Source: a virus
Strand: one strand, 5' to 3'
Length of the DNA stretch: 30,067 bases
IMG/VR virus record: IMGVR_UViG_3300044625_000877
Location: 1 to 30,067 of that record
The notes under the pieces were generated by a model. The model was not told the DNA's origin. It saw only the letters and a program-made list of their open reading frames with translations, and made no database searches. A program made the position numbers and the translations under genes. This document shows, piece after piece, positions 1 through 30,067 of the stretch. Positions within the stretch are counted from its first letter, which is position 1. Each line of letters starts with the position of its first letter.

Positions 1-158
1 ATTAGTTTATGTGTGTTGATATCGTGTTGTTCAAATAGATTTCTAATGTGTTCAAATACGTCTTCGATTCCTTGCTGATAATCTGAATTCTGATTTGTGT
101 TGTATTTTGTAAATGTGCGATAAGAACTCGTTTGCAGTTCCCAAAGCATCATTGCCAT
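1..158. repeat. Terminal direct repeat, left copy
   Basis: Bases 1-158 recur at 29910-30067 with one difference (C at 127, T at 30036). The repeat lies inside a coding sequence that reads through the junction into the gene ending at 29903, so the contig closes on itself as a unit of about 29,909 bp. This is seen directly. Whether it is an assembly overlap of a circular or permuted genome or a physical terminal repeat cannot be decided from sequence alone. Confidence 0.95.
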
Positions 159-236
159 ATCAGTTGCCTTCACACAACGCAAATGTGCAAGTGCATCATC
201 ACCATCATCAAGATTAAAAGTTAGTGTTGCTTTCAT
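1..236 (-). CDS. Small conserved phage protein, 5' part (cut by the window edge)
   Basis: The ATG is at 234-236 and the frame is open to base 1. Joined across the junction it ends at a TGA at 29903-29905, giving 80 residues that begin MKATLTFNLDDGDDALAHLR. It resembles the small 'AxLxFNLPD...ALWxxxQxxR'-type proteins common in Bacteroidetes phages and prophages, whose function is unknown to me. The middle (CVKATDMAMMLWELQ) and the acidic C-terminal half look helical. The start overlaps the stop of the 233-442 gene by ATGA, and its own stop overlaps the start of the gene ending at 29906, so it is a translationally coupled link in the leftward operon. The mismatch between repeat copies changes residue 37 from Ser (here) to Asn (at 30036). 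Confidence 0.85.
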   Translation of the reverse strand, partial: MKATLTFNLDDGDDALAHLRCVKATDMAMMLWELQTSSYRTFTKYNTNQNSDYQQGIEDVFEHIRNLFEQHDINTHKL

Positions 237-1415: not shown

Positions 1416-1471
1416 AAAAGAAAAGAAAGAAAAAGAAAAAAAGGTAAAAAAGAAAAAGAAAGAAAAGAAAA
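1416..1471. repeat. 56-bp homopurine mirror repeat (H-DNA/triplex type)
   Basis: The plus strand is all A/G except T at 1445, and it is mirror-symmetric about 1443.5. Outward from the central GG (1443-1444) the left arm reads A7-G-A5-G-A3-G-A4-G-A4 and the right arm T-A6-G-A5-G-A3-G-A4-G-A4. The four G pairs (1435/1452, 1429/1458, 1425/1462, 1420/1467) each sum to 2887. Only the pair 1442/1445 breaks the symmetry, so 27 of 28 positions match. Homopurine mirror repeats are the known substrate for intramolecular triplex (H-DNA). What it does here is inference: a replication or transcription roadblock, an origin part, or a stabilising tail of the RNA encoded just upstream on the minus strand. 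Confidence 0.85.
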
Positions 1472-1486
1472 AGCCTCCCCAAGAAA

Positions 1487-1702
1487 AACAAACGTTCACG
1501 CTAACAAGTAGCATTTACTCGATCCAAGCACTGGTGTTCTGCAAGTTTAGACGTTTGATACTGCGCTGTGTCTTACGCAGGTTATTGTAATTGTGTTAAT
1601 CATAAAGAAGAAAAGCGTGAAGGGAGTAATGCAACAAACCACCCAACACGCTTTCTTGTGTTAATCCTAAACTTGTAAATATGACAGAACGTTTTTGCAT
1701 TG
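1487..1702 (-). ncRNA. Candidate structured non-coding RNA, about 210 nt
   Basis: No convincing reading frame lies between 1347 and 1746. Instead there are nested inverted repeats: 1490-1497 with 1687-1694 (8 bp), 1542-1550 with 1667-1675 (9 bp, 11 with a G-U and an A-U pair), 1612-1619 with 1647-1654 (8 bp, extended by 3 bp past a one-base bulge), and a side hairpin 1561-1565/1576-1580. TTGTGTTAATC occurs twice (1591-1601, 1656-1666) beside the inner hairpin. On the minus strand a TATATTTG box (1706-1713) would start transcription within a few bases of the outermost stem, and the 3' side runs into GTTTTTCTT, GGGGAGGC and a long pyrimidine tract. An alternative 8-bp pairing (1495-1502 with 1614-1621) would exclude the outer and inner stems. 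I cannot match it to a known RNA family. Strand is inferred from the promoter. Confidence 0.5.
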
Positions 1703-1705
1703 CAA

Positions 1706-1713
1706 CAAATATA
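1706..1713 (-). promoter_or_regulatory. TAnnTTTG promoter -7 box for the candidate RNA
   Basis: On the minus strand these bases read TATATTTG, a full match to the Bacteroidetes -7 consensus. Initiation a few bases downstream would fall near 1700, just before the first arm of the outer stem (1694). No TTG/TTTG stands at the usual 18-21 bp upstream spacing, so it might need an activator or the phage sigma-like factor. Confidence 0.4.
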
Positions 1714-2169: not shown

Positions 2170-2650
2170 TTTGTTTAAGTTTTTGTTTTATTTTATCTAT
2201 TGTTCTATAAAGATACACCGAAGGAATACCAGTTTGTTTTGAAAGTTCTTTGTACGTGAAATCTTCAAGTATGTATTCTTCAAATACTAATCTTTCAAAT
2301 TCACTTAAGCGACTGATTAAGATATCCAGTTGTTCGTTCGTCATTCTTGCACCTAACCACGTTTTATCTTCTTCATAATTCTTATCTACAAAATCACGTT
2401 TGTTTCTTTTGTATTCGATGTGCAATTTGTAGAATGGTGATGATGGTGAATTGATAGACAAGTACATTACACGTATTATATAGAATTCAAATTCTTCATT
2501 CTGCAAAAGATTGTCAATGTGTTTTGATTTTACTGCGCTGATAATTGCATCGTGCAATAAATCTTCGTAATAATCTTGACCACGTGCAATATTGTGCGCA
2601 ATCTTTTTTAAATGCGTATAGTTCTTGTTTATGTAATTATCAAGTGTCAA
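2156..2650 (-). CDS. Phage-encoded sigma-70-like (ECF-type) factor
   Basis: The 164-aa protein has the two-part layout of a small sigma factor. Residues 1-62 (HLKKIAHNIARGQDYYEDLLHDAI) resemble region 2, where a conserved acidic pair follows the region 2.1 helix. Residues 105-160 contain LSEFERLVFEEYILEDFTYK then ELSKQTGIPSVYLYRTIDKI, a typical region 4 helix-turn-helix that would bind a -33/-35 element. Such proteins occur in several Flavobacterium-type phages. Its place as second gene of the leftward (mostly virion) unit suggests a role in directing host polymerase to late or phage-specific promoters. That role is inferred. It overlaps the nuclease gene by 11 bp. Confidence 0.8.
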   Translation of the reverse strand: MTLDNYINKNYTHLKKIAHNIARGQDYYEDLLHDAIISAVKSKHIDNLLQNEEFEFYIIRVMYLSINSPSSPFYKLHIEYKRNKRDFVDKNYEEDKTWLGARMTNEQLDILISRLSEFERLVFEEYILEDFTYKELSKQTGIPSVYLYRTIDKIKQKLKQNVIR

Positions 2651-3044
2651 GATACTTCTTTATTATTTCAATTGCTTCATTACTACCTTTACAAATATAC
2701 GAATCGTAATTTCTATTTCTTAATTCACTTTGCCACCACTTTTGTTCGCTTGATATTGCACCACCTTTTTCTTTCTTCATTTCAATCGCAAGACCGTGAA
2801 ATGATCCACGTGGTTCGTAGATAAACAAATCTGGAAAACCTTTAACGTAACCAGTACGTTTCATTTTTACTGCTTGTAAATAACTTGTACGCATACCACC
2901 TGCTGAAGCGCAATACAACGCGTTTGGATACGCAGAACGAATGAATTGAATGACCAATTGTTGCTGATACGCTTCAGAATTCACTTTCAAATTGTTCTTT
3001 TTGTATGTTTTTTTAGGTTTTCTATTAAAAGTTTTTATGTTCAT
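2640..3044 (-). CDS. VRR-NUC domain nuclease (PD-(D/E)xK fold)
   Basis: The 134-aa protein matches the small stand-alone VRR-NUC nucleases of phages. It shows an N-terminal Glu (E24 in SEAYQQQ), the catalytic GFPDLFI (PD at 71-72), AIEMK (E88 and K90 of the ExK motif), and a SEQKWW motif (Q101). These enzymes cut branched or junction DNA and usually accompany phage replication or recombination. A lysine-rich tail precedes the domain (residues 8-20). It is the first gene of the leftward unit. The ATG at 3042-3044 lies about 90 bases downstream of the predicted start of transcription. Confidence 0.9.
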   Translation of the reverse strand: MNIKTFNRKPKKTYKKNNLKVNSEAYQQQLVIQFIRSAYPNALYCASAGGMRTSYLQAVKMKRTGYVKGFPDLFIYEPRGSFHGLAIEMKKEKGGAISSEQKWWQSELRNRNYDSYICKGSNEAIEIIKKYLDT

Positions 3045-29675: not shown

Positions 29676-29906
29676 TTACGATCCACAATACAAGCAATCG
29701 TCGCCAGTATCGTTCAAGATTCGTTCGATTTCTTCATTGATTTGTTGTTCATTCCACGTTGGGTGAAATGCTTTGATTTGTGAACGCAAAAATGCGTTGT
29801 TGTTGTCGCTCATAATTTGTTTATTTTTTTTTAATATAACATTCCACTCCCATTTATCTTTTGGCGCATTCCATAATTCTTCAAACATCGAATCTAATAT
29901 GCTCAT
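29676..29906 (-). CDS. Hypothetical protein, 76 aa (possibly two small proteins joined)
   Basis: ATG 29904-29906 overlaps the stop of the junction-crossing gene (ATGA). The N-terminal half (MFEELWNAPKDKWEWNVILK) resembles a small phage peptide of the 'LFKELWExPKDKxxW' type. A second ATG at residue 32 (MSDNNNAFLRSQIKAFHPTW) follows codons AAA AAA AAT AAA CAA ATT, which look like the usual A-rich leader of this genome. It may be a read-through fusion of two small genes, or the second start may be used independently. The end has CLYC. Confidence 0.7.
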   Translation of the reverse strand: MSILDSMFEELWNAPKDKWEWNVILKKNKQIMSDNNNAFLRSQIKAFHPTWNEQQINEEIERILNDTGDDCLYCGS

Positions 29907-30067
29907 ATGATTAGTTTATGTGTGTTGATATCGTGTTGTTCAAATAGATTTCTAATGTGTTCAAATACGTCTTCGATTCCTTGCTGATAATCTGAATTCT
30001 GATTTGTGTTGTATTTTGTAAATGTGCGATAAGAATTCGTTTGCAGTTCCCAAAGCATCATTGCCAT
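29903..30067 (-). CDS. Small conserved phage protein, 3' part (repeat copy)
   Basis: This is the C-terminal part of the 80-aa protein whose 5' part lies at 1-236. The frame ends at TGA 29903-29905 after TKYNTNQNYQQGIEDVFEH-type sequence and INTHKLII. It is cut at the right edge of the window. At 30036 the T gives Asn37 where the left copy has Ser37. The stop overlaps the next start (29906) by ATGA. Confidence 0.85.
   Translation of the reverse strand: MAMMLWELQTNSYRTFTKYNTNQNSDYQQGIEDVFEHIRNLFEQHDINTHKLII
29910..30067. repeat. Terminal direct repeat, right copy
   Basis: This segment repeats bases 1-158 with one mismatch (T30036 against C127). The mismatch creates GAATTC in this copy. Confidence 0.95.

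What the first reader, a model, noticed from the sequence alone, without database searches (positions are those of the whole stretch)
1487..1713. Undescribed structured RNA candidate inside the leftward operon
Three nested long-range stems (1490-1497/1687-1694, 1542-1550/1667-1675, 1612-1619/1647-1654), a side hairpin and a duplicated 11-mer lie in a gene-free block, with a TAnnTTTG box placed so that transcription would begin just before the outer stem. I can match it to no known RNA family.
Basis: partly seen in the sequence, partly recalled or inferred. Interest (0 to 1): 0.75.

Follow-up and report, generated by a model that had tools for sequence, protein, structure and literature searches.

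The report
Pseudoknotted late-operon leader RNA in phages
A gene-free stretch in a virus of Bacteroidota bacteria encodes a previously uncatalogued folded RNA whose shape is kept by matched mutations in dozens of related viruses; it sits like a gate just before the genes that build the virus particle, though no experiment has yet shown what it does.

Summary
The finding is real, but the fold must be redrawn. The block makes a minus-strand RNA with no Rfam match, even at E up to 10. Relatives in more than 100 viral stretches show compensatory changes well above controls.

The supported architecture has two modules:

(1) A 5' module just after a conserved TAnnTTTG box. It is an intrinsic-terminator-like hairpin whose loop pairs with the RNA's own 5' end (window AAUGCAA/UUGCAUU). 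This pairing recurs with many unrelated but matched sequences, including four different perfect 7-mers in one scaffold.

(2) A 3' module: a hairpin with a loop pseudoknot, a GCA/UGC helix and a second hairpin. It is followed by a G-run and a mirror-symmetric pyrimidine tract.

Some relatives carry a different large RNA in place of module 2, weakly like Rfam Betaproteobacteria-1. An overlapping small ORF is not conserved.

Position (after a Cys-rich gene, before the structural genes) suggests a leader that controls transcription into the late operon. That function is inferred. I rate it a new RNA family with an unusual terminator architecture.

The parts
1706..1713 (-). TATATTTG, Bacteroidota-type -7 box; predicted start of the RNA about 1700-1702
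   Evidence: Identical in the 8 closest distinct sequences; a TAnnTTTG-like box precedes the leaders of the other groups. Transcription itself not shown. No convincing -33 element was found by eye.
1695..1701 (-). 5' segment AAUGCAA that pairs with the terminator loop (pseudoknot partner a)
   Evidence: 100% paired in 8 distinct sequences, but invariant within this group; complementary pairing recurs with different sequences in other groups
1647..1654 (-).
   Evidence: 100% of cells paired, 4 of 8 pairs with changes on both sides
1628..1634 (-). loop UUGCAUU, pseudoknot partner a'
   Evidence: As for 1695-1701
1612..1619 (-). 3' arm of the terminator-like hairpin (CACGCUUU)
1604..1611 (-). U-rich tract after the hairpin (UCUUCUUU), predicted intrinsic terminator
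   Evidence: A T-rich tail follows the hairpin in the leaders collected (where it was a search criterion; also by eye); termination not shown.
1576..1580 (-). P3 5' arm CUGCG
   Evidence: 99.8% paired over 85 sequences, all five pairs with double changes
1561..1565 (-). P3 3' arm CGCAG
1570..1573 (-). P3 loop segment AGAC, pairs with 1549-1552
   Evidence: Pseudoknot helix 89.2% paired over 85 sequences, 22 double-change cells at its central pair
1549..1552 (-). GUCU, pseudoknot partner of the P3 loop
1540..1542 (-). GCA, pairs with UGC 1528-1530
   Evidence: 100% paired; GUA/UAC in 6 and GCG/CGC in 3 sequences
1528..1530 (-). UGC partner, inside the most conserved stretch of the 3' module
1500..1512 (-). 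terminal hairpin GCUA-CUUGU-UAGC
   Evidence: Helix 97.9% paired, four of five pairs with double changes
1474..1480 (-). conserved G-run (GGGGAGG)
   Evidence: A G-run stands before the pyrimidine tract in most relatives
1416..1473 (-). pyrimidine tract, mirror-symmetric about ACC (1443-1445)
   Evidence: Mirror score beats run shuffles in most lineages but not in the L248-type tails; different spacings, still mirrored, in L268 and L275
1747..2169 (-). 140-aa Cys-rich gene directly upstream, next to the RNA in nearly all relatives
   Evidence: Pfam gives only a sub-threshold DUF6171 match

Best explanation
The block is the structured leader RNA of the phage's late operon, made of two modules. 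Transcription starts just after the TATATTTG box at about 1700 and runs leftward. The first 100 nt form an intrinsic-terminator-like hairpin whose loop pairs back to the RNA's own 5' end, or in one group to an upstream hairpin loop. I propose that this loop-locked terminator sets how many polymerases stop there. Polymerases that read through make the 3' module, a compact pseudoknotted RNA with a G-run and a pyrimidine tract, and go on into the structural genes. Shown by comparison: the fold of both modules on the minus strand, the matched turnover of the loop and 5' sequences, and the position. Inferred: transcription from this box, termination at the hairpin, that pairing alters termination, and that read-through is raised late in infection by the neighbouring Cys-rich or sigma-like protein or by the 3' module acting on RNA polymerase.
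For: 3' module over 85 distinct sequences: 96.3% of cells paired, 155 double-change cells against 42.0 (sd 4.4) in shuffles, none of 500 as high; slid structures give at most 28 (separate MAFFT alignment). 5' module: across 84 distinct leaders, the longest Watson-Crick match of the first 28 nt to the terminator loop is 7 bp or more in 48, against 2% with shuffled loops and 9% with loops swapped between leaders. In 48 leaders of the GYCAA type the pairing holds in all but one of 384 cells, and pseudoknot and hairpin together show 66 double-change cells against 21.8. In the 27 distinct F-type leaders the mean match is 7.1 bp; swapping loops gives 4.6 and never reaches it in 2000 trials. In L268, L270, L271 and L272 the kissing 7-mers are four different but perfectly complementary pairs. 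L165 has a 66-aa gene between the terminator and the 3' module with no clear promoter of its own, so read-through must serve both. Genes upstream on the same strand include a sigma-like one; portal, capsid and tape-measure genes lie further along the same strand once the record is read as circular.
Against: No transcript, termination or read-through data exist. Energy does not single out the window fold (z = -1.7). The window's pseudoknot partner sequence is invariant among its closest relatives, so its own pairing is supported mainly by analogy with other leader types. A few mosaic leaders lack good complementarity (L062 type, 3 loci; L193 5 bp). Nothing shows that the Cys-rich protein acts on transcription; its predicted model was too poor to use (pLDDT 58.6). 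The 3' module could act in trans instead.
Confidence: 0.47

Rival explanations
1. The block makes one or two trans-acting phage small RNAs. The 5' module is a self-capped, pseudoknotted RNA of about 100 nt ending at its terminator, and the 3' module is a second RNA processed from read-through. They regulate host or phage mRNAs or bind a host protein.
For: A 5' end locked into the terminator loop would suit a stable short RNA; RydC is a pseudoknotted small RNA whose fold is needed for stability (PMC4337610). The 3' module is nearly invariant at several unpaired positions, as for a binding surface. Other structured RNAs take its place at the same locus.
Against: The modules stay at one spot before the late genes in nearly all relatives. 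The 5' pairing sequence turns over fast, which does not suit a fixed target.
Confidence: 0.3
2. The conserved stretch encodes a small protein with the consensus [M]TTLAxHQCLxRATALL and a hydrophobic tail encoded by the pyrimidine tract.
For: An ATG and an open frame are present in many relatives. Read in the frame CTT-GCA, the variable columns fall more often on third codon positions (my recount of that output, whose own frame labels were set one base off).
Against: The window copy begins ACG and has an in-frame TAG. The start codon is missing in several lineages and most close relatives of the window stop early. In L285, L287, L288, L290 and L291 the helix changes GCA/UGC to GUA/UAC turn the would-be HQC into LRY. 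Hairpin length changes shift the frame.
Confidence: 0.04
3. The conserved element works as DNA: a replication origin or packaging site in which the pyrimidine mirror repeat forms an intramolecular triplex (H-DNA).
For: The tract is a mirror repeat in several lineages with different spacings; the phage encodes a DnaA C-terminal domain protein.
Against: Covariation with pseudoknots, kissing loops and G-U pairs on one strand is an RNA signature. The tract is missing in relatives that carry the other RNA at this place, and the L248-type tail is not a mirror.
Confidence: 0.08
4. The 3' module is part of a mobile or homing cassette that moves between phages, together with nearby nuclease genes.
For: The module is closely similar in phages whose neighbouring protein is only 22-36% identical. 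Genes between it and the next conserved gene vary, including HNH-like ones.
Against: It stays at the same locus, and most copies have no nuclease gene next to them. Recombination between related phages explains the pattern without a transposition unit.
Confidence: 0.08

Closest known systems
Lambda-type late leader (Q gene, pR', early terminator)
   Same: A regulator-like gene, then a promoter, then a terminator close downstream, then the late genes on the same strand (lambda layout from my own knowledge; role of lambda Q in PMC7171158, abstract).
   Different: No Q homologue was recognised; the box is Bacteroidota-type; the terminator loop pairs with the RNA's own 5' end; a second conserved RNA module follows.
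HK022 put RNA
   Same: A phage-encoded RNA early in a transcript, in an operon that must pass terminators (PMC9378689).
   Different: put is modelled as 73 nt with two stem-loops. This RNA has two pseudoknotted modules over about 220 nt, and antitermination is not shown.
Rfam RF02932 Betaproteobacteria-1 RNA
   Same: A related-looking RNA stands in place of the 3' module in some relatives (28.5 bits in L013, 22.9 bits in L081; gathering score 49.4).
   Different: The window RNA does not match it at all; the 3' module has another fold.
RydC-type pseudoknotted small RNA
   Same: A short RNA with a pseudoknot important for its stability (PMC4337610).
   Different: Bacterial and Hfq-bound; here the RNA is phage-borne, the pairing sequence changes from phage to phage, and the RNA lies in front of an operon.

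Membership tests
Any Rfam 15 family | Covariance-model score at or above the gathering threshold | tested here: not met
   0 hits in the whole window; 0 hits up to E = 10 in 1340-1750
RF02932 Betaproteobacteria-1 | Score of at least 49.4 bits | tested here: not met
   Window: none. Alternative 3' modules in relatives: 28.5 bits (L013) and 22.9 bits (L081), below threshold
HK022 put RNA | About 73 nt with two stem-loops | tested here: not met
   Architecture differs (against PMC9378689)
HK022 put RNA | Makes RNA polymerase resistant to terminators in cis | not testable with these tools
   Needs transcription assays
Lambda-type late leader | Intrinsic terminator shortly after the late promoter | tested here: inconclusive
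   Box, covarying hairpin and U-rich tract found; termination not shown
Lambda-type late leader | Late structural genes downstream on the same strand | tested here: met
   Portal, capsid and tape-measure genes on the minus strand, reached by reading leftward around the record
Lambda-type late leader | Q antiterminator encoded just upstream | tested here: inconclusive
   A conserved Cys-rich protein is there but Pfam and PHROGs give no function
RydC-like small RNA | Released short RNA acting in trans through Hfq | not testable with these tools
   No expression data
Protein-coding small ORF | Start codon and open frame conserved | tested here: not met
   Window ACG start and TAG; start lost or frame cut in several lineages

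The most novel reading that the evidence does not exclude
A class of transcription terminator whose hairpin loop is locked by base pairing to the transcript's own 5' end or to an upstream hairpin loop, with fast-diverging matched sequences that act as phage-specific codes. The codes could control late-operon read-through and prevent or cause cross-talk between co-infecting phages. It is coupled to a swappable downstream RNA module that acts on RNA polymerase.
Probability: 0.3. Interest if true: 0.9.

Novelty: new variant of a known kind. Interest (0 to 1): 0.72.

Why it matters
Gene-expression timing in phages of Bacteroidota is poorly known (my own judgement). This RNA is widespread in environmental viral contigs, lacks any Rfam entry, and gives a concrete testable idea: terminator strength set by a kissing interaction with the transcript's own start. 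The fast but matched change of the paired sequences offers ready-made compensatory mutants, and the swap between two unrelated 3' RNAs at one locus points to a shared, unknown function.

Tried and rejected
Duplicated 11-mer: not conserved. Single-sequence folding of the plus and minus strands: weak. Small ORF: rejected. Alternative helices in the 3' module (UUGCA/UGCAA, 85% paired; CCAA/UUGG triloop) are weaker than GCA/UGC: they show one-sided changes only, and CCAA/UUGG is lost in L285-L291. tRNA or tmRNA: none in the window nor in L268-L274. Bacterial genomes: a protein profile of the neighbour and a motif of the 3' module gave no related locus. Cultured phages: no DNA match to the RNA beyond low-complexity pieces. 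Literature: no description found; the 2017 paper on 224 candidate RNAs is not held.

Full report
What is there. The window is a 30,067-base IMG/VR virus record of a Bacteroidota-type phage; its terminase is closest to that of Flavobacterium phage 11b, at 46% identity. The first ~3 kb run leftward: VRR-NUC (2640-3044), a sigma-like protein (2156-2650) and a 140-aa Cys-rich protein (1747-2169). The gene-free block follows. Portal, capsid and tape-measure genes lie on the same strand and are reached by reading leftward around the record, whose two ends carry nearly the same gene.

The observation. The box TATATTTG (1713-1706, minus strand) and the three stems exist in the sequence. Folding energy is not impressive (z = -1.7). 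Rfam has no match. With the neighbour protein as bait, 80 related loci were fetched; in the 11 closest the block is conserved just downstream of that gene. The outer two are paired in 80% and 71% of cells, with one double-changed pair between them.

The 3' module. A DNA pattern for its most conserved stretch found 107 viral stretches. Nearly all lie just downstream of a homologue of the Cys-rich gene, some of these only 22-36% identical. Aligned over 78 distinct sequences and then over 85 with a covariance model, it shows a hairpin (CUGCG/CGCAG in the window; CUUCG/CGAAG, CUGAG/CUCAG and others elsewhere), a pseudoknot from its loop to GUCU, a GCA/UGC helix (also GCG/CGC and GUA/UAC) and a last hairpin. 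96.3% of cells are paired and 155 cells carry double changes, against 42.0 in shuffles and at most 28 when the structure is slid. The model also recovers L283-L291, which were not used to build it, and does not find the other RNA types at this locus above noise. The alignment is fitted to the model, so the MAFFT alignment is the safer one; both agree.

The 5' module. In the window the terminator-like stem AAAGCGUG/CACGCUUU is followed by UCUUCUUU, and its loop UUGCAUU is complementary to AAUGCAA at the predicted 5' end. The same arrangement occurs in other leaders with other sequences: GUCAAACC/GGUUUGAC, CAGGGUG/CACCCUG, AUGCGUGA/UCACGCAU, CAUGCGACA/UGUCGCAUG and more. In L268, L270, L271 and L272 it is a loop-loop match with four different perfect 7-mers while the scaffold around them is conserved. 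Controls: 48 of 84 distinct leaders have a match of 7 bp or more, against 2% with shuffled loops; loops swapped among the 27 distinct F-type leaders never reach the observed mean in 2000 trials; in 48 leaders of the GYCAA type, pseudoknot and hairpin give 66 double-change cells against 21.8. A few mosaics break the pairing (L062 type, L193).

Modularity. In other relatives the 5' module is followed by a larger, different RNA that weakly resembles Rfam Betaproteobacteria-1. A pattern for that RNA hits at least 120 viral stretches in varied phages. In L165 a 66-aa gene lies between the terminator and the 3' module. After the RNA come variable accessory genes and then a conserved 117-aa gene.

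Coding alternative. A frame with the consensus MTTLAxHQCLxRATALL overlaps the 3' module in many relatives. The window copy has ACG and TAG, several lineages lack the start, and helix-preserving changes in L285-L291 break the would-be peptide. I therefore read the constraint as RNA.

The pyrimidine tract (1473-1416) is a mirror repeat in several lineages with different spacings, but not in the L248-type tails, so I list it as suggestive only.

Mechanism. The best reading is a late-operon leader with a loop-locked terminator and a read-through RNA module. The fold, the strand and the position are shown by comparison; transcription, termination, regulation and partners are inferred. The closest working analogies are the lambda late leader and HK022 put RNA (PMC9378689); it is not shown to be a member of either by the tests above.

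Noticed in passing
L013 5547-5639, L022, L068, L292, L344 and others, same locus: A different RNA of roughly 330 nt replaces the 3' module; sub-threshold match to Rfam Betaproteobacteria-1, and a pattern for it hits at least 120 viral stretches with varied neighbours.
   Followed up: partly
L017, L019, L020, L026 and others, downstream of the Cys-rich gene: A further conserved block of about 240 nt beginning GGACATAGAAAGG follows a small reverse-strand gene; probably another structured RNA.
   Followed up: no
window 1416-1473: Polypyrimidine mirror repeat; spacings differ between lineages yet stay mirrored in several of them, as expected of a triplex-forming sequence.
   Followed up: partly
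L268, L270, L271, L272: Leader loops in one conserved scaffold carry four different, perfectly complementary 7-mers next to genes 88-91% identical in DNA: fast matched turnover.
   Followed up: partly
L165 about 555-780: A 66-aa gene inserted between the terminator and the 3' module.
   Followed up: partly
window 1-236 and 29903-30067: Both ends carry nearly the same gene sequence, so the record is probably terminally redundant or circular.
   Followed up: no
L272, about 150-265 nt after the Cys-rich gene: A tRNA-like sequence (GTCAGGTGGCGGAATGG...GTTCGAATCTTGTCCTGAC) follows the leader terminator; ARAGORN does not call it.
   Followed up: partly
downstream of the RNA in L163, L188, L194, L200, L224, L247: Small proteins with an HNH-like CMCCNST...SVDHI motif among the variable accessory genes after the RNA.
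   Followed up: no
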